This document shows positions 22,916 to 59,009 of a DNA stretch of 64,000 nucleotides, piece by piece (position 1 is the stretch's first letter; each line of letters begins with the position of its first letter). The notes beneath the pieces were generated by a model, which made no database searches, had not been told where the DNA came from, and saw only the letters and a program-made list of their open reading frames with translations. This DNA is from Macrolepiota albuminosa. Taxonomy: Eukaryota > Basidiomycota > Agaricomycetes > Agaricales > Agaricaceae. The position numbers and the translations under genes were made by a program. The stretch is from positions 1,307,419-1,371,418 of the forward strand of contig JAMWFC010000037.1 of assembly GCA_027475525.1 (NCBI GenBank), given 5' to 3'.

Positions 22916-22932
22916 TCACCCCCCCTTCAGCG
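22916..22932 (-). promoter_or_regulatory. Polypurine tract of A3
   Basis: On the minus strand GAAGGGGGGGTGA abuts the 3' LTR. This is the usual primer for plus-strand DNA synthesis and confirms that the LTR at 22158-22915 is the 3' one, although the accessory gene beside it reads the other way. The same arrangement is at 57198-57212. Confidence 0.75.
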
Positions 22933-23041
22933 CCGAGACCCTCCGAGGCACGCATAGCCGGTTGGTTGGACCGGGGTTCAACCGTGGGATCCGGCACCTG
23001 ACTTGCCACATATCGAAAAAATTTTACCGTCAAGTTCAAAC

Positions 23042-25799
23042 ATGTTGCGTACGCCAACACATTCTCCGACGCCCCCACACACTAACGAGGTCACGCCCCT
23101 CATGGCCTGGGAGGCCCGGGACGCGCGATACTGAGCCCGCCTTGACTGGGAGCGTGTGGCGGAGCTTGTCCGGCAATGTGAGTGCTTCCCACGTCATCTG
23201 CCTGTCTCAGCTGACCTTCCTATTCCAGAACAACTCAGTAATCCTGCCCCGGAAGCGGGTCCTGGTCGGCACCTGGAGTCTGCTCCCGAGGCGGGCCCTA
23301 GTGCCCTCCCGGAGTCCTGCCCGAGTCGTCCCGCGCCTACTTTTGCACGGATGACTGTCCGCCCTCCCTGTCCGCACCCCCCTCCCCGCCCTAGGCTGCC
23401 TGCCCCCCCATTTCCGTCGCTCCGGGATGGCGGTGGGGACCGTTGCAGAGGTCCTGGAAGATCAACGTGTTGCGTGGGCGGCTGTGACGCAGGAGCTGTT
23501 CGGGGAGGCCCTAGAGAGGCTCCGGGGTCTGCCTGCCCATGCCTGGTGCGTGAGCAACGGACCGGTGAGTGGGCTCCTACCTCTTGGTCTTTCTGCTGAC
23601 TTTGGTGCAGTGCTTGCACTGTGCCCAGCGCATGGTGCCTTGCCTATTCGAGGTTCCGGGCCCCTTGTCCCGCCACGATACGTCTGTCTGCAAGGCCTGC
23701 CGTCTCAACCATGAGCGGTGCTCCATGTCGGCGCTGTGGAGGGCGCGGTGTGTCTCCCGGGAGCAGGGGTGGCCGCTGGCTGGGGTTACTCGGAGGATGG
23801 GAGTTGAGGAGCGGGATTGGGTGGTGGAGCCGGTGGAGGAGGGGATGGAGCCAGTGGGGGAGGTGCCCGCAGCGCCTGCAGAGGCACCCAGTGGAGGTTG
23901 GGGGGCTGGGGGCGGCCCGTGGTTCTAATCACCTGTCAGGTGACCCGGGCCGGGACCGGCAGTCACAAGGGTCGCGGGGGGCGCCCCGACAAGGGGAAGA
24001 GGCAGGCGTCGCCTAGTCCCTCCCTGGGCCCATCCAAGAGGGCGCGCCTGCCCCTGAGGACCCCATCCCTGGTCTCCCCCTGTCACGAACCACGCCTACG
24101 CCACCCTGAACCCCCAGTAAGTCCTGCCTGGAACCCCTCCTTTGAGACCCAACCCCCCAGCGTGCCCCCGGAACACATCGGGGCAAGACCGACTAGATCT
24201 GATGCCACCCCAACCAGGGCCGACCCAGCCCAACCCAATGCTCAACCCCCGGATAAGGCCCAAAGCCCCGCCAACACGCCACGTGCCCCGGACACCACCC
24301 CAAGCCTCGATCAATCATGCCGGAGGCCGCTCTCCACTTGACGCCGCCCTCCCGGTGCCACTCCCGAACCCGGGCAATACACCGCAACCCATCTACGCCC
24401 CCCGGGACTACACGACCGCAGAGGACTGACACCCGGACAATACGCCACACAGGACGCACCACATAGAAGGGGGTACGGACCTTATCCAGGGGGCCGGAGC
24501 TCAGCCGGCACCTGGTACTTAACCTGCAGCTCGTAGTACGTTACGGTAGTCTTGATATTGCTCCAGGGGGCCGGAGCTCAGCCGGCACCTGGTACTTAAC
24601 CTGCAGCTCGTAGTACGTTACGGTAGTCTTGATATTGCTATAACTCGTCTCTATACTCTCCTGTCTATTTCCTACTTGTCTCAATCTATCTGCTTTACTC
24701 TTTCAAGTCTCTCGGCCCACTAAAAGTCTCACTTCAATTTGAACTTAGTCTCCCGGTTTCAGTCTCAGTCTCCCGGTCTCAGTCTCTTTTTCCAATCACC
24801 CCTCCACCCTAGCAAGGCTCCGCCCACCCCCGCCCCGTATTCCGGACTTAGCCCAGGATCTTGCTCCACCTCTTCCTACGAACTCCGGCGCTCCGTAGCC
24901 ACCCCACACCCTACTTAAAACTCCGGAACTCACCCGGAGACTCTCCGTAGACTTCGAGTCTGCCTAGTAAGGACCCGCTCGCCCCCGGAGGCCCCCGTCA
25001 TCAGCGGAACCTGACACCCCTCCTCGCCTATCTCCCGCGGAGTTCTCCCCCTTGTCCAGGGGACTCCTAGCCCACGACATCGAGGTTCTGCAGGAGCAGG
25101 CCGGGCGAGAGCAGGGGGTTCACAAGGAGGGGATGAGGGGGGAGGCGGCGGCCGGGAGGGGTTTGGAGGAGAGTCGGGAAGAGATGATCTGGGGCCTGGA
25201 GGAGGCCAGGGTCGCCCAGGAGGAAGCGGAGGCCGAGCTAGAGGCTCTGAGGGCGAGGCTTGGGCAAGGAGTGGGGCTCCCGAGGAGTGAGAGGTTGGCG
25301 GAGGCCCTGCACCGGGACGTGGTGGTGGCCCGCATAGCCTCATTAAGTGAGTCCCCTTCTCCTCAGACTTGATCTCCTACTGACATTCCCAGGCTGGGCC
25401 CAAGAGCACCGCTTGCTCTTGGACGGGGCGGCCACGGCACTCGCGGCGCTGCAGGAGGGGCAGCGCCCTGAGGTGACGACTCCCAGGGTAGAGCGGGGCC
25501 TCGACTTGCTTGGGCGGGTGGTGTCGGACACCGGCGAAGGAACGTGCCTGCCCCCGGCTCCTGGTTCGAGAGAGTTCTGGACGAGGGTGAGTCTCTCCCG
25601 TCCTGGTTGGCCAAGGAAGTATTGCGGGAGCATGGTCTGGAGGGGATGGGGGAGGGCTTTCGAGGCTGGCCCAGGGAGGGAGGGAGCGGGGTGCAGTAGT
25701 TTTTGTTCATTCTTGTCTTTGCTCGTCTGTGGATCTGTAGAATATTGTACTTATAATAAAATGTATATACTTGGTCTCCTGGGGCAAAGGGTGGTGTAA
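23042..25799 (+). pseudogene. Antisense accessory gene of A3, six-cysteine protein, decayed
   Basis: Plus-strand gene lying between pol and the 3' LTR, homologous to 57327-59009. The first exon starts at ATG 23042 (LMAWEARDARY is recognisable) and ends at 23564. A 46-bp intron (GTGAGT...GTGCAG, 23565-23610) precedes an exon that opens with CLHC. The cysteine pattern is C-X2-C-X6-C-X15-C-X2-C-X6-C, followed by a Lys/Arg-rich region, a Glu-rich probable coiled coil (25052-25346), an intron (25347-25392) and a last exon beginning WAQEHRLLLDGAA. AATAAA near 25756 may be its poly(A) signal. Damage includes a TGA in the first exon, a +1 shift near 23410, a frame change near 23920 and a solo LTR inserted at 24081-25016. 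The function of the family is unknown; a DNA-binding regulator is possible. Confidence 0.7.
24081..25016 (+). repeat. Solo LTR of a family-A relative, inserted in the antisense gene
   Basis: On plus it starts TGTCACG and ends AACCTGACA, which is the sense-strand form of the family-A LTR but strongly diverged in the middle. It contains AGTCTTGATATTG, the family's self-primer word. The antisense gene of A3 is interrupted exactly here relative to A4. The flanks carry CCCC on both sides (24077-24080, 25017-25020), compatible with a 4-bp duplication but low in complexity. 936 bp as assembled, including one 77-bp duplication (24485-24638). Confidence 0.75.
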
Positions 25800-29721: not shown

Positions 29722-30790
29722 TGATGACGCCAACTGTGGTTGGATGTGCTGGACGTATACGCAGTACAACGCCGTCTCCAGCGCTTGGCGTGCGTAGGTG
29801 TGAGGAGTCCTGACAGGGTCCCGGTGTGCTCGAGTGGAGGTAGTAAACGATGCGCTAGATTATAGCGCTTTGGGGGCTACCTGGCAGACGGTAAGCGTCG
29901 TAGTTTAGGCAAAGATATTGGAGAAAAGACAAATAGCGCCATGTATTGTGGCCGTAGGTGGCACCGTAAACGATGAAGACGAGACAGACGAAGCTAGCGC
30001 CCGACTTAGTGACGAAGTCAAAGGAGGCTAGCGCAAGTTGAACGCTGAGTGTAACTGTTTTCTCGAGGGGTTACGATTCGTTGTTATATACATGAAAAGT
30101 AGCTATTTTATATACAGTGCGCTACCGTGTTTGCCAAGATACAAGTCCATCTGCGGCGCTACCTCCTAGCGCCTCTCCTCGTGGTTTACTCTAACGGCGA
30201 CCTGTCAACGGCGACCTTGTGCACATGGCTGACGGCGACCAACGGCGTTATGACCCACGGCGACCTGCGGTGACTCTATATTGACTTAGAGTTGTACGAG
30301 TCTGCTCACTTTTCTATAACTCCGATTGGCCAGGCTGTTCCGGGGTATGGTTGGAAAATCCTCGACAGACGCCGTGAGCGCTAATGTCAGCGCTACTCAT
30401 TGTATTAGTTCCTGTCAGGTCCAGATGTCGGATTTAAGTATATCCGGTGCCGCCGTCATTGATCCCTTTAGACTTCTGATTGAAGTGCCTCGTCTAATGG
30501 CAGCGCCTGCTGCTGGCTCCTTCTGGAAGTGATCGGGGTTTAGTTATAGTCCTCTCCCGCCGTTGTGTTAGCGCTATACGTTATGAGCCTCCTTCGTCCT
30601 TGGGCTAGGTGAAAGGAGAGTGCTGAAGGCTTGGTAGCTAGGGGTTAGGATAAATTTCTAAATCCTGTAGTAGTTTGCCAGAGCTAGAGCTGCTCTATAC
30701 TCCCAACTGGTCGCCAGAGTCCTGCGTACGTCAAGTGTCGGTTGGCCTATAATGTCCCTTGATGCGCTCAGTCCGAGTAGAAGCCTATCA
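29722..30790 (-). repeat. 3' LTR of element B (1069 bp)
   Basis: TGATGACGCC...GCCTATCA. Its length equals the reconstructed other LTR (42502-42928 plus 53669-54310, also 1069 bp). By eye the two differ at about 16 sites, all transitions and about 13 of them at CpG. Contains a cluster of CGGCGACC words (30194-30270). Confidence 0.93.
30194..30270. repeat. Cluster of CGGCGACC words in the B LTR
   Basis: Four copies of CGGCGACC and one variant (CGGCGTTA) occur in about 77 bp, at irregular spacing. The other LTR has the same cluster at 53714-53790. It could be a protein-binding array; the role is not known. Confidence 0.6.
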
Positions 30791-30827: not shown

Positions 30828-30878
30828 ACGCCGTCATTAATTTGACTGCGCTACGGTCCGTAGAATGCCGCCGGCGCC

Positions 30879-30886
30879 TTATAAAA
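30879..30886 (+). promoter_or_regulatory. TATA box of antisense gene B1
   Basis: TTATAAAA lies 52 nt upstream of the ATG at 30938, outside the LTR. It suggests that the antisense gene has its own promoter rather than using the LTR. Confidence 0.65.
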
Positions 30887-30937
30887 ATCGTTTTTTAGCC
30901 CTTCACCTTCTCGTGTTTTCCTTCCCATCTTTCCAAC

Positions 30938-33602
30938 ATGTCCACTCCTTTCGATGCCTCTGCTCTTTGCAATTTCCTGGCTAAAGCCTCTTATTTATTC
31001 GATCGCGCTAAGTCTGTCGGTCCCTCCGATGCACCACAAACCGTCCCTGGCATTATGCAACTATATCGGCGCTGGCTTGTGGTCCGCGGCTCCGACAGTT
31101 CCTGGGTGCGGGGCGTCGAGGTTTGTGAATGGTGCATTGCTCGGTACCGTGAATATGAGGGTGCCGATTGGTTGCTACCGTTCGCGGACTTGTTCGTAAG
31201 TTTTTAGGTTTGCTTTTAGGTTCGTGGCGCTAAGGTTCAGCGCCCATACTAGGCTCCTTCTCTATCCAACGAGATCAACGCCCTGCTGGCTAGTACCGAG
31301 GTTGGCGAGGTGAGTTCCCTCCTTTTCTTCCTCACATTTTCCGTGTTAACCCTGAGTAGTCGGTTGCTACGTCGCCCACCGTTGCAAGTCTTCCTAGTGC
31401 CCCGTCGGCCTCTACCGTTCCTTCCGTTCCGGCCGCTCCTGCTGCTCCTGTTTCCGTTCTGCCTCCTCCCATTCTTGGTAGTCCCTTTCGTGGCGATGCT
31501 TCTCCCGCTCGCCCTGCGCCCATCGTCGCTTCTCCCACTCATACTGCGCCTCCTCACTCGGCCATCAAATGGATTGCCGTTACTGCCAGTGAGCCCCGGC
31601 CCGGACCTACCCATACTATTTCTCGCCTTCCCCCCCGTAACTTCGCCGTCGTTATTAATCGCGCGCCCCCTACTCTCGCTAGTCCTCCCAAACGTACCGT
31701 GCGTCCTTGTCTTCTTGCCTCTAGTTCTTCTACTCACTCTGCTTCTTAGGTCAATCTCCCTGCTCGTGTTGCCCCTTTGTATGTCGTAAGTGTTTCCTTT
31801 TAAGATCGCTTGTCTCTAGCGCCTGATCGAGCCCTCCTTAGGCGCCCAACCAAACTATGTTTACCGACGCGGAGCTTCGTGATTTGCTGCGTCTTCGTCG
31901 TGATACTACCGTCATTGATACCGGCCTCCCGGCTGGTGTCCAGGTGCTCGGCGCTAAGAAGAAGGTTACGGTGGCACCCGTGGAGCGCCGTGCCTTTAGG
32001 GCAAAGATTGGTGCGGTAAGTGCATGTTTGTCCCTGAAAGGTTGATGACGTCGCTAACTTCTTTCCCAGTGCGATAAATGCTGGTCTGAAAACGATCCTG
32101 AAGGTTGCTGGTTTCCTACCGCCTCTCTTCCCTGCTACCGTTGCGATGCGTTGAAACGGGGCTGTGCCTTCAATGGGATTCGTACTCGCAAACGTGGTAG
32201 GGACGCTATCATGCAGCGCAATTACGAGTGAAACGGGGCTGTGCCTTCAATGGGATTCGTACTCGCAAACGTGGTAGGGACGCTATCATGCAGCGCAATT
32301 ACGAGCGCGCAGTCTTAGTTTGTAACGCCCGGGCCTTTGTGCTGCAGCAACGCAATTTGGCCGCTACTCGTCAGCCCACTGTGATTAGCGCTGCAAGTCT
32401 AGCGCTTCCCATCACCCAAGATGGTACTACCGTGACTGCCCCCTTTGCCCGTTCTCCCCGTCGTCCCGTCCCTTCAAAGCGTAAGCCTATTGTCGCCTCT
32501 CCTAGCAAGAGTCCCGGTAAGCGCCGGGAGCTAGCGCCTGCTACTCCCATCGTCTTGTCTTCTACCGAGTCGTCTACTGATGAAGGCGAGGATACTGAGA
32601 GAGACGCCGAGGGCGAAGATGACGATGAGGCTGGGCCTGTAGTCGACACCGATGCGCTGTTGGCGGTACGCGCTCTTCTGCTTCGCATTACTCCCCCTTT
32701 CGCCGCTAACCCTTATCAGAGTGGCCCCAGTGGTAACCGGTGCGTAGGCTTCGGGTTTTCTTCGCCAGGTGATGCTAACCTCTTCGTCGCTAGTTCCCCT
32801 ACTCCCTCGCTTCCGGTTGTCGTGAATATCCCTCCCGCCGAAGATGTCGTAATGTCTGTTGCCGGGCTAGTTCCCCTACTCCCTCGCTTCCGGTTGTCGT
32901 GAATATCCCTCCCGCCGAAGATGTCGTAATGTCTGTTGCCGGTGCTACCCCTGCTCCCGAGCCTGTCGCGGCTAGCGCCTCCCCCGTTGCCCTTCCTATT
33001 ACACCATCTCTTACCCCTCCTCATAGCCTCTCTTCTTTCCCCAGTACTCGCGAGTCCTCTACCGCGCCTGAGTCCGAAGGGACCTTAGTAGCTCAGGGCG
33101 AGCGCCGCCGCCGCTGGAGGTACTTGCCTTCCTATGGCATCCGCCTTTCTTCTGCTAGGGCCATGTCCCCAGGCGATGAGCACCATGAATGGACCCCCCG
33201 TGCTCCCGTAACCGTTCGAGTAAGTCTGCATTTCCTAGTTAGTTCGCCTCTCCGCTGACCTCCTCTAAGTTCGATCCTTTTTGGACTCCTCCCCCCGCCA
33301 TGCGCGTTTCCGGCGACGCCTATCCCTGGCTTGGGGATGAGTTCTCTTATCCTGTCACTCCCCTACGTCCTGCCGCCGATCTCCATCAACAACTTCGCCA
33401 GATCGAGGACGCGACCGACGTCGTTGGTAGCGAACTCGCCCTCCTCTGTCCTCGTGTCTCCACCTTAGCGCGCCGTGAGCTCCTCCTGCTTGAGCTCCAT
33501 GACGACATCACTGATGCGCTTGAGTGGCAAGCAAGTAACGCCATTCAAGACGGGGACTTGCTTCCATTGGGTGATCCCGCTCCCTCCGCGTCTGATGCGT
33601 AG
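30938..33602 (+). CDS. Antisense gene B1: seven-exon, six-cysteine (Zn2Cys6-like) protein
   Basis: Plus-strand gene between the polypurine tract and the end of pol. Inferred exons: 30938-31195, 31253-31309, 31360-31698, 31750-31785, 31842-32015, 32070-33219 and 33270-33602, with introns of about 50-57 bp, all GT...AG and all in phase 0. Exon 6 contains two 77-bp duplications; removing them gives 332 whole codons and a protein of about 730 residues without a stop. Residues 1-86 look helical, followed by a Pro/Ser-rich stretch. The sixth exon opens with the cysteine pattern C-X2-C-X8-C-X8-C-X2-C-X6-C (CDKC...CYRC), followed by RTRKRGRD, an acidic Ser/Glu/Asp stretch and a helical C-terminus. 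The layout resembles fungal zinc-cluster regulators, but the spacing differs from GAL4, so DNA binding is inference. No family name recognised. Confidence 0.75.
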
Positions 33603-34128: not shown

Positions 34129-34748
34129 ATGGAAAGCCCAACCGGCATCGTGTGGACTGCCCGTTGTGATCGTGCTCATATCGTAATGGATCCCCCCACT
34201 TTCCTGGAACGCGCTACCTCGTTCTTCCACCACTACCCAGCGGTTGGCGTGCCCGGGCTGACCGACGGAGTCGTTGAGTTAGGTCGTCGCTGCCAGCTAC
34301 TTTGTGTGGCCTGTGAGATCTGGAACGATGACCTGCCGTTGACCCGTTTCGGTATGGAGAAAAACTGGAGTCGGATTTTTCAGGTGCGCTATTGCCTTTT
34401 TCGCCCTCCTTCTCTTCTGATAGTCGCCCAATAAAGCAAATCGCGACCAAGGAAACGAAGGAGCGTCTTGAGTTGCTGCTGGAGGAGAGTCACTACCTGG
34501 TCCGTTACCTTATTACCTTGTTTTCTTCCTTCTAACGCATTGCCCTGCTAGGCGCCCCGCTCGTCTACTGGTGGCCGGCTTTTTCCTTATTACCTTGTTT
34601 TCTTCCTTCTAACGCATTGCCCTGCTAGGCGCCCCGCTCGTCTACTGGTGGCCGGCTTTTTCGCGGTCCAACTGAAGGCTGGCGGCTTCCAGGCCTCTCC
34701 TTTTGCCCGGTCCTTGATACTCGTCTGTCTCCCATGTCGTTTATGTAA
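34129..34748 (+). CDS. Antisense gene B2: short paralogue of the B1 N-terminus
   Basis: TATAAAT at 34086 and ATG at 34129. Inferred exons: 34129-34383, 34437-34499 and 34552-34748 (the last spans the 77-bp duplication 34508-34661), ending TAA; about 145 residues after correction. The first intron is GTGCGC...AAAG; the second has an unusual GTCCGT donor. Exon 1 shows a pattern, F-L-E-R-A...F...P...G...L-G-R-R...W, that also appears in exon 1 of B1 and in B3. No cysteine motif is present. Function unknown; it may be a truncated copy or a regulator acting on the same partner as B1. Confidence 0.55.
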
Positions 34749-35034
34749 GTCGGCTTCTTCTTTTTCGTGGCGCCACCGGGCTGACAGATTTTGGCTAGTT
34801 GATTTCTTTTGTCGTGTTTATGTAAGTCGGCTTCTTCTTTTTCGTGGCGCCACCGGGCTGACAGATTTTGGCTAGTTGATTTCTTTTGTCGTAGTTATAT
34901 GAAATGCATCATTGTCTTCTCCCCCCCCCTCATGATTGTTTGCGCATGTAAGAGTTCCCAAGTATCCGCGACCCTGCAACCAGCTGGAGGTATTTTATGG
35001 ATTCTGGCGCAGTTAACCCGGTTAGTATCATATC
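34749..35034. other. Spacer between antisense genes B2 and B3
   Basis: Contains the right half of a 77-bp duplication (34739-34892). No open frame of note and no clear promoter word. Confidence 0.4.
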
Positions 35035-35781
35035 ATGCCAGAACCTTCCCTCCTTCTTGATGACCCCGTACTCATTCACCGGCCTCTCATCCTAGATCGC
35101 CTCGAGCGCTTCCTCGCGTTAATGCCTGACGGCGGCTTTCCGCAGGAGAATAGTAACATATTGACCCTTGTGCGCCGATACCGGATCCTTCTAGCGGCCT
35201 CTGCCGAATGGGAGATAGACACAGACCCGGCCCTAGTCACCGTAAACCCTTTATTAGCGCATGTTTTAGGTAATACTTATGCGCGCCGTAGGAGCAGACC
35301 ATTGCTGGTACCGCGTTGAGCCTTCATAGTCTTCTCCGCGAGACTGGGGGTTTGGTTAGTACCTGTACCCCTTTTTCGCCTGGCTTTGGTTAGCTAACTC
35401 CCTGCCCTTTTCTAGAGCCTTTCCTGGCTCCCTCTTCCGGTTCTTGTCAACCCTACCGCTAGTAGAGCCGTGCTCGACCACGTGATCGTTCCTTTCACAG
35501 CTTTAGAGCGTCGCTTGGACGAGGCCGGGTGGTACTTGTCCCCTACTTGTCCCGCCGCTCCCCCGGGTCCTTCCCGCACTCCACCTACAATTGCCTTTCC
35601 TGTGCCTCCTCCTCGCGCTCCCGTACCTCCTTCTCCAGTCGCTCCCGTACCTCCTCCTCCAGTCACTCCTCCCGCGCCGCCTAACGCTGCCATCTGTCCC
35701 CCTTCCGGTGCTCCTCCCACCTATAGGCGACACAAGGAGCGAGTCAAGGGTCCTCGTCGGCGGTCGTCATCATTGTCCTAA
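35035..35781 (+). CDS. Antisense gene B3: second short paralogue with Pro-rich tail
   Basis: ATG at 35035 begins a frame (35035-35319) containing R-L-E-R-F...P-D-G-G-F-P...L-V-R-R-Y...W, similar in spacing to exon 1 of B1 and B2. A second exon after TTTTCTAG (35416-35781) reads SLSWLPLPVLV, then ERRLDEAGWYL, a Pro-rich segment and a basic end (RRHKERVKGPRRR), and stops at 35781. The donor between them is unclear (GTACCG at 35309 is in phase but weak). It lies 141 bp from the end of pol, convergent with it. Function unknown. Confidence 0.45.
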
Positions 35782-39603: not shown

Positions 39604-39676
39604 CTCCTCGATGGCGCCGGAAAACACTCGCAAGGGTCGTCGCTAATAAGCGCTTCATCTCCATGATCCTCATCAC

Positions 39677-42460: not shown

Positions 42461-42479
42461 GAATTCTGTCTCAGAAGAA

Positions 42480-43923: not shown

Positions 43924-43960
43924 TCTCCCCCCCACCAAATAAAGACTGTCCTCAGTCATT
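43924..43960 (-). promoter_or_regulatory. Polypurine tract and inverted motif of C
   Basis: On minus GGTGGGGGGGAGA abuts the 3' LTR, followed inward by GACTGTCCTCAGTC, the same 14-nt word that element B has at the same position. Confidence 0.75.
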
Positions 43961-44134
43961 CACAGTTCCAGATTAGGTCAAGTTCCATTTCTCTGCCATC
44001 ATATCAAAATTTTCGTCCGGCCCTCCTGCAAGGTTTGTAGGTTTCTTTTGCATGTTTTTGCTGTCCTCCCTGTCGCCTCAAAGGCCATTTAAACCCCTCC
44101 TATCATCCCCTACATCCCTAGTTCACCATCCCCC

Positions 44135-46567: not shown

Positions 46568-49500
46568 TTACTCTTCCTGTTCTTCCCCTAGGTGTATGCC
46601 CCGGAGGTAGAGATCTTCCTCCACTTGTCCCTCATTCTTTTCTTCTCTTAGCTCTTGTAGCTTAGAAGGAGTGATATCAATCCATTCCTCTATACTAGTA
46701 GGTAGAGTGATTTGCTGCCTAGCCTTGTAAGGTATAACCCTAAAGGCAGCCACCCTCTCTTGCCATACAGTACCATCCAACTCTGCCACTATGTAGTTCC
46801 CCCCCTTAGTCCTAGTCAACACTACCATAGGTCCCCAATAGCGAGCAGACATTTTCCCACTTAGAGACTTAGCTGCCACTATATTCCTAACCAGTACTAA
46901 GTCTCTTGGCTTGAACTCGTACTCCTTAATAGAAGCTTCATTTTCTCTTGTGAAGTTCTCTGCCCATCTCAACTTCTCCTTGCTGACTCTAGTCCTCATG
47001 TCCTCCACATGCTGGTAGTGCTTTGCCAGTGCTTGAGCCCTTAAGCCAATTAAGTCTTCTGTAGACACTGGTCCATCAGGCCAGTCTACCAACCAAGTGG
47101 CTTCCACTAAGTCCAAGGGTAGTATAGGATGTGCTCCAGTTACTAAGAAGAATGGGGAACACCCAAATCTCTTTCTAACTGTAATCCTGTCTGCCCACAT
47201 TACATGCCAAAAGAACCAGTACCACTTGGTTCTGTCTTCACAGGCTTTATACAAGGCCTGCCTCACATCCCAATGTGGTCTCTCTATCCTCCCATTAGCT
47301 CTAGAATTATAGGGAGCAATAGTTATGCCCTGTATCCCATACTTCTTAGATAGCCAATGTACCACTTTTGTGAACTGCCCAGCATTATCTGTTACAATAG
47401 TGCTTATACAGCCCCATCTGCATATCACTTCTTCAAACAACCACTGCCCAATCAACTTGTGGTTATCCTTCTTTAAAGGTCTACCCTCCATCCATGAGGT
47501 TAAAGTGCATCTCCCATGTACAATATATTTACACCCATTTGAACTTGGTGTCATATGCATGGTATCCAAGTGTATGGTTTCAAATATACTGGGAGTGTAG
47601 GCTACCACAGGCTGCCTGCACTTGGTGTCATATGCATGGTATCCAAGTGTATGGTTTCAAATATACTGGGAGTGTAGGCTACCACAGGCTGCCTGCACAC
47701 TGCAACTTTCTGCCTTACTTGGCAAGCATGACAAGTGTCTATATACCACTTTACATCAGCTTCCATTTCTGGCCACCAAAACCTCTCCTCCAGTAAAGCC
47801 TTAGTTGCAAAAGTCCCTCTGTGACCAAGTGCATCATGAGCAGACTTTAGCATATACATCCTCCTGTCCTTCTCTATGACTAGCTTGTGCTTCCCCTCTT
47901 CTCCTCTCTTGTAAAACCTTCCCTTGAGATCAAAGAAGAACTGCCTTGCAAACTTTAGAAATTGTCCTTCTTTCACCTCTCTGGGTACCTTTCCAGGATG
48001 CCTAAGCCAATCCTGTACTAGTGGTAAGAGGGTATCTAAGGATTTTCCCTTCTCAGTTCTCCTCTCTTCCTGGTACTCTTCCACAGTAGAGGCAGAGGGC
48101 TTTTCTGGCAGCAAGAGTGTAGATAAAGTTAAGACTGCCACTGGGTTTAGTGTAGTCCCTACTTTAGTGCTCTGTTCTTGTAAGCCCAAGGCTATTCCTT
48201 GCTCCCTGTCTCTACCCAACTCCACTTCTTCCTGTACATCCTCTGGAGTGACAGCTAGCAAGTAGCCTCCTCTTGTATCAATCTCATCCATGAAGTCTTC
48301 TAACTTGAGGGGCACATGTTCCTCCCAACCAGGTACTCTGTTGATCTCATCTGGATACTCAAAGGACATTGGCTTTGGATCATCCAGTAAAGATGGGTCC
48401 ACAGGAGGATACTCTTCATCTCCTGGTTGCTTCTCTCTGCGAGATAGACCATCCATACTGAAAGTCTTTCCTGGCACATGCCTCAAAGTGAAGTGATACA
48501 TAAGTACAGCTTCCACCCAGCGCATTATAGTAGCATTAGGTCCTATTCCTGGGTTGCTCAGCATGCCCTTGAGGTATTTAGCATCACTCTCAATGATAAG
48601 CTTTCTGCACCCTAGTAACCAATAGCTGCTAACTTGTAATGCCCTCATAAGACCATACAACTCTCTCTTAGGTTGTGAAAACCTAGCCTCCCTCTCATTC
48701 AAGGTAATGGACCCCAGTCTAGCACAAGTCCTCTGTTTTGGATTTGTACTGTCCTCTTGGAAGATCCCAAACCCAACAGCCATCCAAGAAGTGTCTACTG
48801 CCAAGATGACAGCTCCTTCAGACTCATAGTCTATAGGTCTTAGAGCTGCACAACTTGCTAACCTCCTCTTCATCTCCTTCATGGCCTCCTTCTGTTCTTC
48901 CTCCCAGACAAAAGCCACATCATCCTTAGTGAGCCTATTGATAGGCTCTGAGATCTTGGCATAGTCCTGGATGAACATCCTGAAGGTACCACAAGTTCCC
49001 AGAAACTTCCTAACCTCAGAGACATTGCGACAGTCTCCCCAACTCATGACCACTGCATATCTCTTTGTCTCTGGCTTGCGCCCCTCATAAGAACACAAGT
49101 GACCCACTACAGTGATTTCATCTGCACATAGCACAGACTTAGTCCCTGAGAAAGTTCCTCCAGCATACTTGATGCGCTGAACAACTCTATTGACATTGTT
49201 CAGGTGCTCCCATACAAAGCGCCTAATCCCTTTATTCTCTGCAATAGTCTCATATCCTCCTCCTTCCAACTCATACCTAGTCTCAGGTCCTCTTATTGGA
49301 ACATCATCAATATAAGGCCAAGTGACATGAGGTATCTCATCCTGCAAGATATAAGTAACATCATCATGGAAGATGGGAACTGAATTAGTCCATCCCATTG
49401 GCAATGTCACCAATCTCAGAGCTCCATAAGGTGTCTGAAAGGTAGTATAGTCCCTAGACTTAGGGTCCAAAGTCCTTTCATCATATCCAACATAGAGATC

Positions 49501-50403
49501 ACACATCCCACCACATGCTCTTCCAGCAAAGTGGTTGGCCAGTTCTTCTGTAGCAGGAGGTACTCCAGAATGAGCTATAGTGACTTTGTTTAGAGGTTCT
49601 AAACTGTGCACAAGCCTTAGACTTTTCCCATCCTTCTTCAGAACAGCGAACCATTGTGACCTATATGAGGAATTTGACCTCTCATAAACCCCTGCTTCCA
49701 ACTTCCTCTTAATCTCCTTGCACAGGTCATTGTACTTCCCAGGAGGTATGGGTCTGTTTTTCAACACCCAAGGCTGGTGAGGTACTACTGGCATAACAAC
49801 AGGTGGGAAGTATTCCTCTTTGAACTTCCCCTTCTGACTGTCATTCCATGCAAAGGCCTCATTCTGCTGCATCATCAACTGGTGCAGTAACTTCCTCTCT
49901 TCTGGCCACAGAAACTCCCCTTCATGTGCTTGGTCAATAATCTGTTTGCACTCCTCTGTGTACCTCCCAGTAGGTCTGAATTCAGGTGGATGTGGACTCA
50001 AAGGTGGCATATCCTTCAAAGGATCACCAGTGATATTCCTCTCTATCCTGAACTCCTCTGGGGTAGTACCCAACACAGGTCTAACTTTCTTGGCAACAGG
50101 CTTATATTTCCCAAGCACTTGTACAGTTTCCTCCTGGCTTTTCTCCCCCCCACTCTTTAACTCTTCAGGTAGGTAGCCAAGCTCTCCATTCAAGTAAGCT
50201 CCCAGCAACTGCCCTGTCCTTTCTCCTTCCCTTCCAGTAGCATGGTAAGCAGCCAAGTACACATCCCTGAGTTCTTGCTGCTCAAAACTCTTCTCCTTGA
50301 CACAGTACCCCTTGATCCAGAAACCTTCCTCCTCACTCCCCTCTATCATCACTGCAGCCTCTCCTTGATCTGGGATCAACTCCTCAAGGCTGAAGCTTTT
50401 CCC
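46568..50403 (-). CDS. pol: pol of element C: RT, RNase H, integrase
   Basis: Reached by -1 frameshifting at GGGAAAA (50403-50397) from the protease frame; I see no convincing ATG start. Domains on minus: RT with LYVGYDERT, TTFQTPYGALRLVTLPMGW and YIDD (near 49310); RNase H (LAVDTSWMAVGFG near 48790, LIIESDAKYLKGML near 48580); integrase with HHCC finger (HDALGH...CHAC, near 47840-47720), catalytic residues in LDTMHM, VTDNAGQF and RIERPH, a GPY-like region (YWGPMVVL) and an acidic C-terminus. No chromodomain. The frame is broken only by the 77-bp duplication 47543-47696; removing it gives about 1250 residues without a stop. This is the best preserved pol in the window. Confidence 0.9.
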
Positions 50404-51401
50404 AACTCCTCCTTGTTGCCACTAGGGGGTGCCTTGCCTCTCTCATAAGTTGGCAGTGCAGTCCTCTTCCCAGTATTAGGATCCCTGATAGTGATGATTG
50501 CACTACCATCCTTCAAGTTCTGCACATTACTCTCAGTGGCTGTATCAAATGGCCTCCCCAGTAATACTGTATAAGCAGGTTTCTCAAATATATGCACTTG
50601 CAAGTATATTGTGAAACCCTCAGCAAACTTGAAGGGCACATTCTTGGCCATCCCCAAAGACTCATTAACCTGCTGATTGGCACTCTCCATGCGCAACCTT
50701 ATATCAGGATCCCAAGTCAATCTCAGACTTAATGCCTTGTCCAAAGCCATGCACACAATCTGAGACCCACTGTCCAATATAGCCTCCACCTTAGCTTGGT
50801 CATTCACACTAGGGTACAGAGACCTCAACACTTGCAAGTCTCTGGCCACATAGACCACTTCTGGCCTATCCCCTGGTGGAAGCTGTTCCAAGAAGGTAGC
50901 CACACAGTCCTCATGAACCACTGATCCCTTTGGAACCCCTTCTTCTTCACTCTGAGAGATATGGTACCCTGGTTGAGGCAAGTCATCTATATTGACCTGG
51001 CTCATTACAGAAGCACTTCTATCCTCCTGTGCAAAGACCTTGGCAGCTGTCCACTTGGTAGCACCTTCCCTCCTCCTCCAAGTCTTCTCCAGAGCCTCTT
51101 GTAAGGCTGGCACCTTCAACAATTCCCTTGTAGAAATTGTCACCTCATTGTCCAATATTTTGCTGACAATCTCATCCTCCCTTCTCTGCCATACTCTGGG
51201 CTGATACAACTCTTTCTTGTCACTTTGAAATTTTACTATTTTCTCTCCATTGACAGCAGGCACCTGCTCAAAGGGCAGGTTCCCTTTGCCTACTTCTATA
51301 ACTCCCCTTTGCCTTTTCAGATCACTCTCAGGTGGTAGTGGTGTCCTCAATTCAGGCTGGACCCTTCCATCTGCCACCATCCTTGAGTTCTCTAAAAACC
51401 C
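50376..51401 (-). CDS. Protease frame of element C
   Basis: Frame between gag and pol, entered by -1 frameshifting at GGGTTTT (51401-51395) and left by a second -1 shift at GGGAAAA before its TGA at 50376. It encodes a linker of about 180 residues and then a retropepsin-like domain: AILDSGSQIVCMA (catalytic DSG), GMAKNVPF and LLGRPFD. An aspartic protease of this kind would cut the polyprotein. Its own frame, separate from both Gag and RT, recalls betaretroviruses. Confidence 0.82.
   Translation of the reverse strand, partial: GFLENSRMVADGRVQPELRTPLPPESDLKRQRGVIEVGKGNLPFEQVPAVNGEKIVKFQSDKKELYQPRVWQRREDEIVSKILDNEVTISTRELLKVPALQEALEKTWRRREGATKWTAAKVFAQEDRSASVMSQVNIDDLPQPGYHISQSEEEGVPKGSVVHEDCVATFLEQLPPGDRPEVVYVARDLQVLRSLYPSVNDQAKVEAILDSGSQIVCMALDKALSLRLTWDPDIRLRMESANQQVNESLGMAKNVPFKFAEGFTIYLQVHIFEKPAYTVLLGRPFDTATESNVQNLKDGSAIITIRDPNTGKRTALPTYERGKAPPSGNKEELGKASALRS
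50397..50403 (-). promoter_or_regulatory. Slippery heptamer GGGAAAA, protease to RT (-1)
   Basis: In the protease frame the codons are TTG GGA AAA GCT, so the X-XXY-YYZ register is correct. A -1 slip continues as AAA AGC TTC in the open RT frame, bypassing the TGA at 50376-50378. Confidence 0.75.
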
Positions 51402-52666
51402 TCCTGCTTCTGCTGGGTGTTCTTCTCATAAGTCTGACTCCTAGTAGTTATCAGACTGGCCACCAAGCTCTGCAGTTCTTCTATCTTCTTCTCCAAATCC
51501 TCTTTCTCCTTGGGCACTGCCTGCACATATGTAGACACACTAGGCACAACAGTGACTGGCTCTTCAACCCAACCATAGAAAGCAGCAGCCTTAGGATCCA
51601 TGATAGCATTGACCCTTTCCTTGGGAGACACATTAGGTGGGCTCCTGGGAATGGGATCCCCAGAAGGTAGCCTAGGCCTGCCTTCAAAGAGGATGAGCTT
51701 GCCTTCTTGGACTTGAGTCTTGAGATATTCACAGTCATTGGTCCTGTGTCCCAACTCCCAACAGTGATAACAATTTATCCCAGCAGCTGAACTGTTGCCT
51801 CCTGGAAACTGAACAGTCTGCAAAGCCTGAGCAGGCATCCCCAGCCTAGTCTGCAGTCCTCCCTGCATAGGAACCTGGCTCTTGGCCTTCCACTCATTGT
51901 TCATGGTCTGCATGAACCCCCTCAGACTGCTCATCTCTTTCCCCAAAGCCATAACTCCATCTTGCAAGTTGGCTAACCTCCCCTCAGTCTCCAGGTCAAC
52001 CTCCTGCTTAACCTTGATCACCCCCGGAGCTCTCTCTTTTGTTCCCTCATCATCTCGGAATGACGTTCCAGAGTCGACTAAAATAGACACGATATTTATA
52101 ACTTCCTTTAGATCATATCTGTCATCTTTGTGTCGTTTCCTAGATACATCACTGTAATGTCCGTACTTTTGCAAGGCTTGTGCTAAGATTAGCTCACGGA
52201 ATGCTGGTGTGAAGCACTTGGTAAATTTGTCCACCAACGCTCCATTCCCTAGCACCCCTGTCAACTTCTTTGCCTCAGCCCGGAATTTCTGAACAAGCGC
52301 ATGAATTTCTTCTGTGTCATGCTGCCCTAAACGTGCGTGCTCTCGACAGATCCGATCAAGCACTGCCACGCTTCCCTCATCTGAGATTGCTTCAGGGTAA
52401 GAACTTTGTATTTCTTTGACAAAATCGTCATACGTAGATTCGTCCCCAAAGCTATCTAACCCTCTCCACTCACTATCCGTCTCAGCGTCCACATATTCCG
52501 TCAACTTGTCCTTCTGTTCCTGGTCATCATTGATCCCTGCAGCCTTGAAGAGGCTCTCCATCTTTCGAAGGAAGCGCCGTACTTCTGTAGGCTGTGTATG
52601 GGTGAACCGAGGAGCGTCACGACTTGTTGATAGTGGCAGCTTTTGTCTCACTATTTCGGCGGGCAT
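51392..52666 (-). CDS. gag: gag of element C
   Basis: About 424 residues from the ATG at 52666 (MPAEIV); the frame is open further upstream into the truncated LTR but without another ATG. Landmarks: KMESLFKAAGIN, ADSEW-type capsid motifs (ETDSEWRGLDSF), helical capsid-like region, and one zinc knuckle CYHCWELGHRTNDC (C-X2-C-X4-H-X4-C) near 51770. The gag sequence has no stop before TAG 51392. Gag would form particles; the excess of Gag over the frameshifted products is the usual stoichiometry. Confidence 0.85.
   Translation of the reverse strand: MPAEIVRQKLPLSTSRDAPRFTHTQPTEVRRFLRKMESLFKAAGINDDQEQKDKLTEYVDAETDSEWRGLDSFGDESTYDDFVKEIQSSYPEAISDEGSVAVLDRICREHARLGQHDTEEIHALVQKFRAEAKKLTGVLGNGALVDKFTKCFTPAFRELILAQALQKYGHYSDVSRKRHKDDRYDLKEVINIVSILVDSGTSFRDDEGTKERAPGVIKVKQEVDLETEGRLANLQDGVMALGKEMSSLRGFMQTMNNEWKAKSQVPMQGGLQTRLGMPAQALQTVQFPGGNSSAAGINCYHCWELGHRTNDCEYLKTQVQEGKLILFEGRPRLPSGDPIPRSPPNVSPKERVNAIMDPKAAAFYGWVEEPVTVVPSVSTYVQAVPKEKEDLEKKIEELQSLVASLITTRSQTYEKNTQQKQEGF
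51395..51401 (-). promoter_or_regulatory. Slippery heptamer GGGTTTT, gag to protease (-1)
   Basis: In gag frame the codons are GAG GGT TTT TAG: the heptamer is in register and immediately precedes the gag stop (51392-51394). A -1 slip enters the open protease frame (TTA GAG AAC TCA). I have not looked for a downstream pseudoknot. Confidence 0.75.
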
Positions 52667-52814
52667 ATTTTGTGTTGGATTTTGTGTATTTGATGTATTT
52701 ATACTTGAAATATTGATATCGTTGGATGTACGCTTTCTACTAGATCTCAAGATCTGTTCTGGGTCCCTGGCACTATTGAGTGTTGTGGTCTTGATGCTAC
52801 GGGTGACGGGCTTG

Positions 52815-53664
52815 CGCTGAGGTTTTTGAGGAATTATAATATTGAATGAGAATAATAATATTCCCACAAGTCGAGGTTTCTTAACAAACTCCGGCCTAAG
52901 CGATTCACTCCCTGGGAATCACCGAGCCTTTGCCTATCAATTGCCTGTCTATTCTCTACTAAACTTGGGCTATTTATACTGTTTTTCTGGTGCACAGACC
53001 ACTATCTACATATGACTCTTTGTCGGAAACTCTCCCACTTCCAGAACGTATTTGATAGTCCAATTTCCCTTTTGGGAGGCCTGTTTCAGTGCCACCCGTT
53101 CCACCATTCTTCCGGATGTTTCTGATTGCCGCTTCTCCATTTGCTTGAGCTCCATTTAGCCTGATCTAATTCATGGATCCTTCTTTCCTCTTTGAGCGCC
53201 TCCCTGCATCCTCTACTTCTTTCCTTTTCCCCTCCTTGTTGTCAAATCGAACATTGACTGATTTGACTTTGAGCGCCTCCCTGCATCCTCTACTTCTTTC
53301 CTTTTCCCCTCCTTGTTGTCAAATCGAACATTGACTGATTTGATGATGAAATTGAGAATTATAATATCGAATGAATATAATAATTTCCCAATTTCATCCT
53401 GTTCCATCCAATCCTGTTCCGTCCATTACCAGCTTCCATGCTTTTCCTCTCCATGACAGTGGTTAGACTATTGTTGAGCTGATAGTTTGAGCCGGTCCCT
53501 GCCTGTTGTTCTGTACTTTTCTGTGTATTTGTTGGGATATTTTCGGAGATAGATATTTGTTGAGACTGCTACCAGGAGGCTTACAGTTTTCAGCCCATAT
53601 TTAAATGTTTATTTTGACTTCTGGTGCATGGTGTGTCCCTGACTGCTGGTACAGCGTCGTATCA
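52815..53664 (-). repeat. 5' LTR of element C, truncated at its inner end
   Basis: Matches 43061-43923 of the other LTR. It lacks the terminal 132 bp (TGTAATACTT side), one 90-bp unit, and has gained a 77-bp duplication (53190-53343); the length arithmetic is exact (863-90+77=850). The break shares CCTCAGCG with the neighbouring gag-side sequence, suggesting microhomology or a false join. Confidence 0.88.
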
Positions 53665-54310: not shown

Positions 54311-54314
54311 CCGT

Positions 54315-56116: not shown

Positions 56117-56329
56117 CAAGATCAGATCTGACAATGCCTGATTTGACATGACTGAAAGGGGAAAGGAAAAGAAGCATGGAGGGATGTCAAAAGAAGCATG
56201 GAATGCAGGGAAGCGCTAAAAGGGGAAAGAAGGATCTATGAATGGGATCGTGCTAAATGGAGCTGAAGCAAATGGGGAAGTGGCAATCAGAGACATCTGG
56301 AGGAATGGTGGAACTGGTGGCACCAAAAC
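56117..56329 (+). repeat. Remnant of a family-C LTR, opposite orientation
   Basis: Reverse complement of the part of the C LTR around 43330-43500 (for example CTAAATGGAGCT, AATGGTGGAAC), about 85% alike by eye. It joins A3 gag on the left and is cut by the 3' LTR of A4 on the right. Older than the intact element C. Confidence 0.75.
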
Positions 56330-57197
56330 TGTCAGGTTCCGCTGAGTCGGGGGCTTTCCGGGAAAGCAACGCCCTTACGATGCGGACTTGACCTACGAAT
56401 ACTCGGGTGTCTGGAACTCCGGGGCTAGGACTCCGGGGTTCAAGACGAGGACAGGGGTAATCCCGGGAGAGGGGACTAGAGTCCGGGGTTTTTGGGTTGG
56501 AGGTAACTGAGAGCTTTCAAGACGAGGACAGGGGTAATCCCGGGAGAGGGGACTAGAGTCCGGGGTTTTTGGGTTGGAGGTAACTGAGAGCTAGAGGGGG
56601 TCGAGTCGTGAACCGGAGGTTCTAATACGAGACCAAGTTAGTAAATCAAGAGTCGCAAAGTGCGTACCAAAACTTAGAGCACGCAAATACTTAGGCGTGC
56701 CAGTCGAAGCGTACCAATCAAGGCGTACCAGTCAAGCAAAGGGCACGCAATAACCAAAGTAATATCAAGACTAGCGAATACAGCGGAGAACTACACTATA
56801 AGTACTACGGATCGTGTCTCGGGATTCTGGGGTGTCTGGGATGAGTTCTGGGGGTCATTGAGTAGCGGTCAGGAACTGTATACCGGGATCGCACGTGTGG
56901 GGACGCGCGATCAATTGGTGCGGAGGGAGTCGTGATGCGTGGGGCGTGATGCATGATGGCCGGATGTGAGCCGCATGATCCGATCGTTGATGGCGGTTGA
57001 TCCTGGGGTCCGTGATGCAGGGGTCCTGGGGGGGCTGGCTGATGGTGATCGTTGACAGCTGATGGCGGTCATTGATGCATGTGATGGCAGTGTCGGCAGC
57101 TGTGGGGGTGGGGTGCGCTGTGGGATTGACGGAAGAGGTTCCCGGGCGGGGCTCCGGGGGTGTCCCGGGGAGGTTCCAGGGGGGAGGGGTTGTGACA
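56330..57197 (-). repeat. 3' LTR of A4
   Basis: TGTCAGG...GTGACA, 868 bp as assembled or 791 after removing the 77-bp duplication 56439-56592. Self-primer word TAATATCAAGACT at 56760-56772 on plus. Followed by the polypurine tract (57198-57212, C-run on plus). Confidence 0.9.
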
Positions 57198-57326
57198 TCA
57201 CCCCCCCCCTCAGCGCCGAGACCCTCCGAGGTGCGCATAGCCGGAGGTTCGGACCGGACCTGAGCATGGGAACCGGTGCCTGCCCTGCCACGTAACGAAA
57301 AAAAATTTTTACCATCAAACTCAACT

Positions 57327-59009
57327 ATGTCGCGAACACCGACGCATTCGCTGACGCCCCCACAAACAAACGAGGTCGCGCCCCTCATGGCGTGGGAAGC
57401 TCGGGACACACGTTACCGGGCTCGTCTTGACTGGGAGCATGTGGCGGCGCTCGTCGAGCAATGTGAGTACTCCCGCACCGCCCTCTTATCCCACTGACCT
57501 TTCCTTTTCAGAACAACGCAACATTCCGGCCCCGGAGACGGGTCCCAGCCGACTCCCGGAGTCTATTCCTGAGGCTGGCCCCAGCACCCCCCCGAAGCCC
57601 TATCTGAGTCGCCCCACGCCGACTTTTGCGTGGACGACCGTACGCCCTCCTCGTCCCCAGCCCCCTCCCCGCCCGAGATTGCCTGCCCCTCGTTTTTGCC
57701 GCTTCCGGATGGCGATAGGGACCATGGCAGAGGTCCCGGAGGGACAACGTGTTGCGTGGGCGGGCGCCACACAGGAGCTGTTTGAGGAGGCCCTGGAGAG
57801 GCCCCAGGGACTGCCTACTCACGCTTGGTGCGTGAGTAACGGACCGGTGAGTTGTGCCCTACCTATGATCCCTATTGCTGACTTCGGTGCAGTGCTTGCA
57901 CTGCGCCCGCCGGAGGGTGCTCTGCACCTTCGAAGTTCTGAGCCCCTCGTCCCGCCGGGACACGGCCGTGTGCAAGGCTTGCCGCCTCAATCACGAGCGC
58001 TGTTCCATGTCAGCGCTGTGGAGGGCGCGTTCTGTCGCCCGGGAGCAGGGATGGCCGCTGGAGGGAATTACCCGGAGGATGGGGGTTGAGGAGCGCGATT
58101 GGGTGGCGGAGCCGGTGGGGGAGGCGGTGGAGCCAGTGGGGGAGGTGCCCAGTGGGGGTTTGGGGAGTCGGGAGGTCGCCCAGGTGGGGGGCTGGGGCCG
58201 GCCTGTGGTGTTGATCACGCGCCGGGCCCCTCGGTCCGTCGCCCAGGGGCAGGGGGGGCACCTGGACAAGGGGAAGCGGCGGGCATTGCCCAGTCCCTCC
58301 CCGGAGCCTCCCAAGAGGGCGCGCCTGTTCCTGGGGACCCCTTCCCCGATATCTCTCCCGCGCCTATTCCCGGCGGTGTTTTTCCCCCTGTCTGGGGGCC
58401 TCCTAGCGGGCGAAGTCGAGACCCTGCAGGGGCAGGTCGGGCGAGAGGAGAGGGGCCACGAGGAGGGGGTGGGGGAGGAGGCAGCGGTCAGAAGGAGCCC
58501 GGAGGGGGATCGGGAGGCCAGGGTTGCCCAGGGAGAAGGGGAGGCCAGGCTGGAGGCGTTACAGGCGAGGCTGGGGCAGGGAGTGGGGATCCCGGAGAGG
58601 GTCCCTTTGGGGCAGGAGTTGGCGGAAGGCCTGCGTCGCGACATAGTAGTCACGCGTATGGCATCTTTGAGTAAGTCCTCCGTTGCCAGGTTCAATCTTC
58701 CTGCTGACTCCTTCAGGTTGGGCCCGGGAGCACCGTCTGCTCCTGGATGGGATTGCCGCAGCGCTGGCTTTGTTCCAGGAGAGGCATTGCCCAGAGGTGA
58801 CGACCCCCAGGATGGAGCGCAGACTGGATCTCCTGGGGCGGTTGGTGGCCGCGCACCAGCGAAGAAACGTACCTGCCCTGGGGTCCTGGTTCGAGCGGGT
58901 GTTGGATGAGGGTGAGCCCCTCCCGTCCTGGGAGCACGGGCCGGAGGGGATGGGGGAGGGCTTCCAGGGTTGGCCGGGGGGAGGGGATGGCGAGGGGGGT
59001 TCCGATTAG
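57327..59009 (+). pseudogene. Antisense gene of A4: six-cysteine (Zn2Cys6-like) protein
   Basis: Plus strand, between the 3' LTR and pol. ATG 57327; first exon to 57846, second 57893-58670, third 58717-59009 (TAG). The introns (57847-57892, 58671-58716) are both 46 bp, GT...AG and in matching phase. Homology with A3 suggests about 520 residues: N-terminal LMAWEARDTRY, a Pro-rich region, then the second exon begins CLHCARRRVLC, giving C-X2-C-X6-C-X15-C-X2-C-X6-C (ending CKACRLNHERC), then SALWRARSVAREQGW, a basic KGKRR/PPKRAR segment, a Glu-rich coiled-coil-like segment and WAREHRLLLDG. One base is missing near 57493 relative to A3, which shifts frame after LVEQ; the rest is open. The cysteine spacing resembles fungal zinc clusters with a longer central loop. 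Role unknown. Confidence 0.72.

What the first reader, a model, noticed from the sequence alone, without database searches (positions are those of the whole stretch)
22916..59009. Three unrelated-looking gypsy families each carry intron-containing genes antisense to pol, just inside the 3' LTR
A3 and A4, element B and element C all have, between the pol stop and the polypurine tract, genes on the opposite strand with several short introns. The C copy (44135-45403) and the corrected B1 copy (30938-33602) are fully open across 5 and 7 exons. Plant Tat-lineage gypsy elements are known to carry antisense ORFs in a similar position, but I know of no described fungal equivalent with spliced genes in several families. 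This may be a common accessory module that helps the elements persist, for example a regulator or anti-silencing factor. That role is inference.
Basis: partly seen in the sequence, partly recalled or inferred. Interest (0 to 1): 0.92.

Follow-up and report, generated by a model that had tools for sequence, protein, structure and literature searches.

The report
Spliced antisense genes in fungal retrotransposons
Three families of jumping genes in a mushroom-type fungus each carry one or more extra genes written backwards next to their right-hand end, with introns, and evolution is preserving the encoded proteins, which probably act in the nucleus to control the element.

Summary
In this 100-Mb fungal genome (protein relatives found only in Termitomyces), three Ty3/gypsy families (A, B, C) carry genes antisense to gag-pol between pol stop and 3' LTR, with 3-6 short GT-AG introns. 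They are real genes. For C (319 aa, 6 exons) 17 of 20 full-length copies are open with every splice site intact; median dN/dS 0.14, third-position excess in all six exons. B gene 1 (730 aa, 7 exons): 0.26; A (538-546 aa, 4 exons): 0.20. The window's B1 frame breaks are exact 77-bp tandem duplications, the only length found (20 in the window, 51 in loci): probably assembly artefacts. Corrections: C has 6 exons; B and C are sister families; both A copies in the window are degenerate; the three proteins are not detectably homologous; a fungal precedent, Boty brtn, is in print. Best explanation: self-promoted nuclear regulators acting in trans, like plant aORF-3R and HTLV HBZ, whose introns persist because the genomic RNA carries them in reverse complement. 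Expression and function are untested. Against a cis requirement: 16 of 40 C pol ends have no detected C gene, and three copies share one deletion of it.

The parts
44135..45403 (+). Family C antisense gene: 6 exons 44135-44341, 44402-44617, 44677-44790, 44870-44924, 44979-45259, 45317-45403; 319 aa
   Evidence: open, all GT-AG; 20 full-length copies; dN/dS 0.144
44080..44134 (+). TATA-like CATTTAAACCC element and short leader of the C antisense gene
   Evidence: TTTAAA within 90 nt upstream of ATG in 20 of 20 copies
45404..45465 (+). 3' end of the C antisense gene with AATAAA
   Evidence: AATAAA within 120 nt of the stop in 14 of 20 copies
42929..43925 (-). Family C 3' LTR (minus-strand element); gene ATG about 210 nt inside it
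   Evidence: an LTR match lies beside the gene in 20 of 20 full-length copies
46568..52867 (-). Family C gag-pol (gag 51392-52867, protease 50376-51380, RNaseH/integrase 47602-50379, integrase end 46568-47608); ORFs meet at a 77-bp duplication starting at 47543
30938..33602 (+). Family B antisense gene 1: 7 exons 30938-31195, 31253-31309, 31360-31698, 31750-31785, 31842-32015, 32070-33219, 33270-33602; Zn2Cys6-like motif in exon 6; window copy interrupted by 77-bp duplications at 32152 and 32789
   Evidence: dN/dS 0.255 over 13 open copies
30878..30937 (+). TATA box (TTATAAAAAT) and leader of B antisense gene 1
   Evidence: TATAAA within 90 nt of ATG in 24 of 24 copies testable, of 27
34129..35034 (+). 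Candidate B antisense gene 2 (starts MESPTG...); exon model incomplete, two 77-bp duplications (34508, 34739)
   Evidence: (115 match rows); N-terminus similar to B genes 1 and 3
35035..35781 (+). Candidate B antisense gene 3 (starts MPEPSLLLDD...); exon model incomplete
   Evidence: open stretches; N-terminus similar to gene 2 (0 of 500 shuffles reach the score)
29722..30790 (-). Family B 3' LTR
   Evidence: 98-99% identical to the split 5' LTR
35923..42016 (-). Family B gag-pol ORFs
57327..59015 (+). A4 antisense gene: exons 57327-57462, 57512-57846, 57893-58670, 58717-59015; in-frame stop at codon 46 (pseudogene copy)
23042..25705 (+). A3 antisense gene remnant, heavily degraded, with extra sequence in exon 3
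56330..57197 (-). LTR next to the A4 antisense gene
22158..22915 (-). LTR next to the A3 antisense gene

Best explanation
Each family carries an accessory gene (B a small array of related genes) that uses its own promoter just inside the 3' LTR, is transcribed towards pol, is spliced, and makes a protein acting in trans, most likely in the nucleus, to regulate the element: LTR transcription, escape from silencing, or handling of its RNA or cDNA. The introns survive retrotransposition because the genomic RNA carries them in reverse complement, where the spliceosome does not recognise them. Shown: gene structure, conserved splice sites, purifying selection, conserved TATA-like boxes (B, C), position, cross-species conservation of the A and C proteins. 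Inferred: transcription and splicing, nuclear location (basic KR/SP patches seen by eye; Zn2Cys6-like motif in A and B), DNA binding, regulatory role.
For: C: 17 of 20 full-length copies open, with start, single stop and all ten splice dinucleotides; splice dinucleotides intact in 19 of 20. Median dN/dS: C 0.144 (17 copies, 128 of 136 pairs in range), B1 0.255 (13 copies, 70 of 78), A 0.199 (5 copies, 7 of 10). Codon-position signal in 6 of 6 C exons, none consistent in introns. TATA-like box in 20 of 20 C and 24 of 24 testable B1 copies. LTR match beside the C gene in 20 of 20 full-length copies, pol-end match in 18 of 20. C relatives 45-65% identical over the full length in Termitomyces (10 of 13 hits); the best A relatives keep the six-Cys region, KR/SP patch and C-terminal domain at 33-39% identity. 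Three copies share a deletion of the gene, so it can spread without it, as expected of a trans-acting factor. Grande's plant counterpart is reported nuclear (PMC7264820) and Retand's TRP28 domain is predicted to bind DNA (PMC11963269).
Against: No RNA data. Pfam Zn_clus match for A is below the curated cut-off (16.7 against 21 bits), no hit for B1, only chance-level hits for C. Structure models are poor (mean pLDDT 46.1 and 52.7) and Foldseek finds nothing at E <= 0.001. 16 of 40 C pol-end copies have no C gene detected within 5 kb; 13 of these are unexplained. Of eight full-length Termitomyces models that I displayed, four (P0007, P0010, P0011, P0012) depart from the six-exon model in places. 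Introns do not diverge faster than third positions (C 0.231 against 0.284; B1 0.061 against 0.104). dN/dS was taken on open copies only, which are related to one another.
Confidence: 0.6

Rival explanations
1. The genes are captured host genes carried as passengers, without a role in the element's life cycle.
For: Host-like introns, TATA-like boxes and, for C, poly(A) signals; no C gene is detected near some pol copies.
Against: A passenger copied only inside an element drifts neutrally; median dN/dS is 0.14-0.26, and C and A relatives persist in other Termitomyces genomes, C several times in one genome by the record names. A host parent gene was not searched for systematically.
Confidence: 0.13
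2. The protein works outside the nucleus, as a structural or movement (env-like) factor.
For: Additional ORFs between pol and 3' LTR can be env-like, though those are in sense orientation (PMC7264820).
Against: By eye the proteins lack obvious membrane segments and show KR/SP basic patches and a Zn2Cys6-like motif (A, B); the poor models are mostly helical. No transmembrane predictor was run.
Confidence: 0.1
3. The antisense transcript, not the protein, matters: it pairs with gag-pol RNA and tunes copy number through small RNAs.
For: Convergent transcription is implied by the layout; the review PMC7264820 raises this option.
Against: Selection is on amino acids; splicing would remove part of the complementarity.
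Confidence: 0.12
4. The gene pattern is a chance or assembly artefact.
For: The assembly contains many exact 77-bp tandem duplications.
Against: Those duplications break genes rather than make them; conservation over 17 open C copies and in other species cannot arise that way.
Confidence: 0.02

Closest known systems
Antisense additional ORFs (aORF-3R) of plant Ty3/gypsy elements: Grande gene23, RIRE2, Retand TRP28, PvRetro13 (PMC7264820 parts 1-2 of 3; PMC11963269 passages)
   Same: Same place and orientation; own promoter and nuclear product reported for Grande; present in most copies of a family; function unknown
   Different: PF04195 (TRP28) and SMC domains were not listed for C, A or B1 at the E-value limits used; three to six introns here; different kingdom
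Boty-like elements of Botrytis cinerea with the antisense gene brtn (Zhao et al. 2011; seen only as cited in PMC7264820 and PMC8365987)
   Same: Fungal LTR element with an antisense gene between pol and 3' LTR
   Different: Ascomycete; sequence not compared and original paper not read, so its intron content is unknown to me
HTLV-1 HBZ (named in PMC11963269; its splicing recalled)
   Same: Antisense gene of a retroelement promoted in or near the 3' LTR; nuclear protein
   Different: No sequence comparison made; animal retrovirus; here the genes lie in a region of their own
Fungal Zn(2)-Cys(6) binuclear cluster proteins (PF00172)
   Same: A and B1 carry C-x2-C-x6/8-C-x8/13-C-x2-C-x6-C
   Different: Score below the Pfam cut-off for A, no hit for B1; spacing departs from the family pattern as I recall it

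Membership tests
Antisense additional ORF (aORF-3R) of LTR retrotransposons | Coding region between pol stop and 3' LTR, opposite strand to gag-pol | tested here: met
Antisense additional ORF (aORF-3R) of LTR retrotransposons | Present in most copies of the family, conserved like other element proteins | tested here: inconclusive
   C in 24 of 40 pol-end copies by capped lists; many A and B copies, but their share of pol copies was not counted; median dN/dS below 0.3
Antisense additional ORF (aORF-3R) of LTR retrotransposons | Transcribed from its own promoter, antisense to gag-pol | not testable with these tools
   Only conserved TATA-like boxes for B and C; no RNA data
Plant Retand TRP28 class | PF04195 domain | tested here: not met
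   Not listed for C (E up to 1), A, B1 or P0006 (E up to 5)
Boty brtn | Sequence homology to brtn | not tested
   brtn sequence not in hand; the 3 protein searches went to C, B1 and A
Fungal Zn(2)-Cys(6) cluster family PF00172 | Score above the curated cut-off | tested here: not met
   A 16.7 bits against 21; B1 no hit
One common A/B/C module | Detectable homology between the proteins | tested here: not met
   hhalign probabilities 0.2-0.3%; shuffle tests of A-B and B-C stretches not significant
HBZ-like antisense retroviral regulator | Spliced antisense transcript started near the 3' LTR giving a nuclear regulator of LTR transcription | not testable with these tools
   Anatomy agrees; function needs experiments

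The most novel reading that the evidence does not exclude
Antisense placement is a general way for retrotransposons to own intron-bearing genes: mRNA for the regulator can be made only from integrated nuclear DNA, never from the element's genomic RNA, and the introns are copied faithfully through the RNA stage. Different fungal gypsy lineages have independently filled this slot with unrelated nuclear regulators (Zn2Cys6-like in A and B, probably all-helical in C) that counter host silencing or control their own LTRs, a fungal counterpart of HBZ.
Probability: 0.35. Interest if true: 0.85.

Novelty: new variant of a known kind. Interest (0 to 1): 0.7.

Why it matters
Antisense accessory genes of LTR retrotransposons have been catalogued for years, mainly in plants, without a known function. 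Here are multi-exon versions in several fungal families, with clear purifying selection and conserved splice sites, in a group where gene-bearing and gene-deleted relatives can be compared. This makes the role of such genes directly testable, suggests how an RNA-copied element can keep spliceosomal introns, and warns annotators that some 'hypothetical proteins' of Termitomyces probably belong to retrotransposons.

Tried and rejected
Rejected: (1) single shared module: no detectable homology among A, B and C proteins. (2) Module swapping between C subfamilies: suggested by higher overall divergence of the gene than of pol, but third-position divergence from the window copy is of the same order (pol 0.11-0.26, gene 0.05-0.40 over 16 copies), so not claimed. 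(3) An eight-exon model of B gene 1: exon 6 reads through, so seven exons. (4) A first C alignment with minus-strand loci left unreversed gave false breaks and was redone (then 15).

Led nowhere: structure models of Termitomyces relatives (mean pLDDT 46.1 and 52.7), Foldseek, PDB sequence searches, protein search with B gene 1 (none of 7988 scored candidates, the query being rich in proline and alanine).

Rows dropped: of 30 C loci, 10 partial ones were left out of the 20-copy set. Of 30 B1 loci, the window's own (L035) and two partial ones (L062, L064) were left out, leaving 27; 11 with 77-bp duplications were not judged. L026 was left out of the per-exon and indel counts. dN/dS uses open copies only; several are near-identical (e.g. 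L038/L039, L058/L059, L072/L073). Ten of 75 A match rows were fetched. DNA searches score only the best 40 candidates and the protein search 125, and one search's list was cut, so copy counts are lower bounds. works on lists typed in (46 pol rows merged to 40).
Full report
WHAT IS THERE. The window is part of contig C115 of a 100-Mb, 129-contig genome. It holds nested Ty3/gypsy elements with pol on the minus strand: an A element is split by a B element, whose 5' LTR is split by a C element (pol domains by Pfam for one A copy, B and C). On the plus strand, between 3' LTR and pol stop, lie intron-containing genes.

THE C GENE. 44135-45403 splices into six exons with five GT-AG introns of 54-79 nt and encodes 319 aa. 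A genome search gave 44 match rows (40 of 57 candidates scored). Thirty loci were fetched and the 20 full-length ones examined: 17 are open from ATG to a single stop with all ten splice dinucleotides intact; two have one internal stop each, and one is frameshifted with a lost acceptor. Over all pairs of the 20 copies, mean divergence is 0.117, 0.067 and 0.284 at codon positions 1, 2 and 3, and 0.231 in introns. With the broken L026 left out, third positions diverge most in each of the six exons in the predicted frame, while introns show no consistent pattern; all 9 exon gaps against the window copy are 6 or 12 nt long (probably two events), while 70 of 75 intron gaps are not multiples of three. 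Median dN/dS among the 17 open copies is 0.144 (128 of 136 pairs with dS 0.05-1.5; range 0.082-0.438). A TTTAAA box lies within 90 nt of the ATG in 20 of 20 copies, and AATAAA within 120 nt of the stop in 14 of 20. Ten of 13 Termitomyces hits cover the whole protein at 45-65% identity. Of eight such sequences displayed, four follow the same exon joins by eye and four depart from them in places (retained or shifted segments), so the public models agree only in part.

THE B GENES. B gene 1 (30938-33602) has seven exons, 730 aa in intact copies. Of 27 other copies examined, 11 contain 77-bp duplications and were not judged; of the other 16, 13 have an open reading frame and 9 of those also have all 12 splice dinucleotides. 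Over the 16, divergence is 0.056, 0.038 and 0.104 at codon positions 1-3 and 0.061 in introns; introns are thus slower than third positions, which I cannot explain. Median dN/dS is 0.255 (13 copies, 70 of 78 pairs in range). TATAAA occurs within 90 nt of the ATG in 24 of 24 testable copies. Two more candidate genes follow at 34129 and 35035; their N-terminal stretches resemble each other (0 of 500 shuffles) and that of gene 1 (3 of 500 each), suggesting a small array of paralogues. Their exon models are incomplete and no selection test was made on them. A protein search with gene 1 found nothing.

THE A GENE. In intact copies it has four exons and 538-546 aa. Of ten copies fetched (of 75 match rows), five are intact (L068, L070-L073; L072 and L073 nearly identical); both copies in the window, A3 and A4, are degenerate. 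Over ten sequences, broken ones included, divergence is 0.103, 0.104 and 0.230 at codon positions 1-3, introns 0.200. Median dN/dS of the five is 0.199 (7 of 10 pairs in range). The protein has a proline-rich N-part, six cysteines C-x2-C-x6-C-x13-C-x2-C-x6-C, a KR/SP basic patch, a predicted long helix and a C-terminal domain. The best three of 6 Termitomyces hits, at 33-39% identity over 73-74% of the query, keep this order; P0014 and P0015 keep all six cysteines, P0016 lacks one. B gene 1 has a similar cysteine pattern (C-x2-C-x8-C-x8-C-x2-C-x6-C), and in both a phase-0 intron ends exactly before the first cysteine. Beyond the cysteines the stretches are not significantly alike, so this is a shared pattern, not proven homology.

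77-BP DUPLICATIONS. All 20 exact tandem duplications found in the window with period 30-399, and all 51 in the loci then held (some loci overlap the window, so the two counts are not independent), have a period of exactly 77. One fixed length in unrelated sequences points to an assembly artefact (unmerged overlaps of a k = 77 graph; inference), not to biology. It accounts for the frame breaks in the window's B1 gene and for some ORF boundaries in pol.

IS THE GENE PART OF THE ELEMENT? An LTR match lies beside the C gene in 20 of 20 full-length copies, and a pol-end match on the other side in 18 of 20, within 1.5-kb flanks. From the pol side, 24 of 40 pol-end copies have a C-gene match within 5 kb downstream. 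Of the 16 without, three share one deletion junction running from just after the gene's ATG to just before the pol stop; two of them are 92-93% identical to the third over the 200-bp junction query, so the deleted form apparently multiplied. Only one of the three was read. The other 13 are unexplained: truncation, nesting, a diverged gene or a different gene. The same count was not made for A and B.

FAMILY RELATIONS. B and C pols are 54% identical over 516 aa; A is 24-25% identical to either. B and C also share a 15-nt motif next to the polypurine tract. So the genes belong to two pol lineages, and the sister families B and C carry proteins with no detectable homology (hhalign probability 0.3%). 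Either the proteins diverge beyond recognition or the slot has been refilled.

HOW IT MOST LIKELY WORKS. Each gene appears to have its own promoter just inside the 3' LTR and is read towards pol. The gag-pol genomic RNA contains these introns in reverse complement, so they would not be spliced out before reverse transcription; this lets an RNA-copied element keep introns (splicing logic, not tested here). It also means the mRNA for the protein can come only from integrated DNA. The proteins look nuclear (basic patches; zinc-cluster-like motif in A and B) and are kept by selection, while gene-deleted copies exist in several places, which fits a factor acting in trans. I therefore favour a regulator of LTR transcription or silencing, at 0.60; expression, localisation and target are all unshown.

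COMPARISON. [quoted passage not shown] Grande's product is reported nuclear with its own promoter. Passages of PMC11963269 report antisense ORFs with a TRP28 domain, predicted to bind DNA, in 97% of Retand clusters; the word intron does not occur in that text. PMC8365987 passages cite brtn as an additional antisense gene; the original paper was not seen. Among the rows listed by searches (15 of 52 papers; 12 of 13; 2 of 2; 12 of 307; 10 of 36; 1 of 1; 4 of 4), none is by title or abstract start about spliced antisense genes in basidiomycete elements; term searches in PMC3248453 and PMC3411680 on fungal elements showed no such passage. Subscription papers and preprints were not searchable. So, as far as seen, this is a new variant of a known kind: same slot and orientation, but with multiple introns, unrelated proteins and several families in one fungus.

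CHANGES ON CHECKING. Confidence was lowered slightly (0.62 to 0.60) after noting that half of the displayed Termitomyces models depart from the exon model and that prevalence was counted for C only.

Noticed in passing
window, e.g. 152-229, 15560-15639, 24485-24562, 32152-32228, 39568-39647, 47543-47621, 60490-60569: 20 exact tandem duplications, every one with period 77 (and 51 in loci): likely unmerged assembly overlaps that create false frame breaks in this genome.
   Followed up: yes
L075 (G000:C88:349300-351300) and places C13:221953-222151 and C95:1327877-1328068: C elements sharing one deletion that removes the antisense gene and the spacer up to the pol stop: a form that apparently multiplied without the gene.
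   Followed up: partly
30790-30826 and 43923-43958: B and C share a 15-nt motif GACTGTCCTCAGTCA next to the polypurine tract, although their antisense genes differ.
   Followed up: no
43329-43468 and 56190-56329: A 140-bp stretch of the C LTR matches, inverted, a stretch next to the LTR at 56330 (85%; 90% for a part of it in L075).
   Followed up: no
17125-19144: A remnant in inverted orientation similar (69-74%) to the B LTR and the start of its antisense region, apparently an old relative of family B.
   Followed up: no
G000:C93:187633, C74:31389, C68:636763 and other pol-end copies listed: 13 C pol-end copies with no C-gene match within 5 kb and without the known deletion junction; they may carry another antisense gene.
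   Followed up: no
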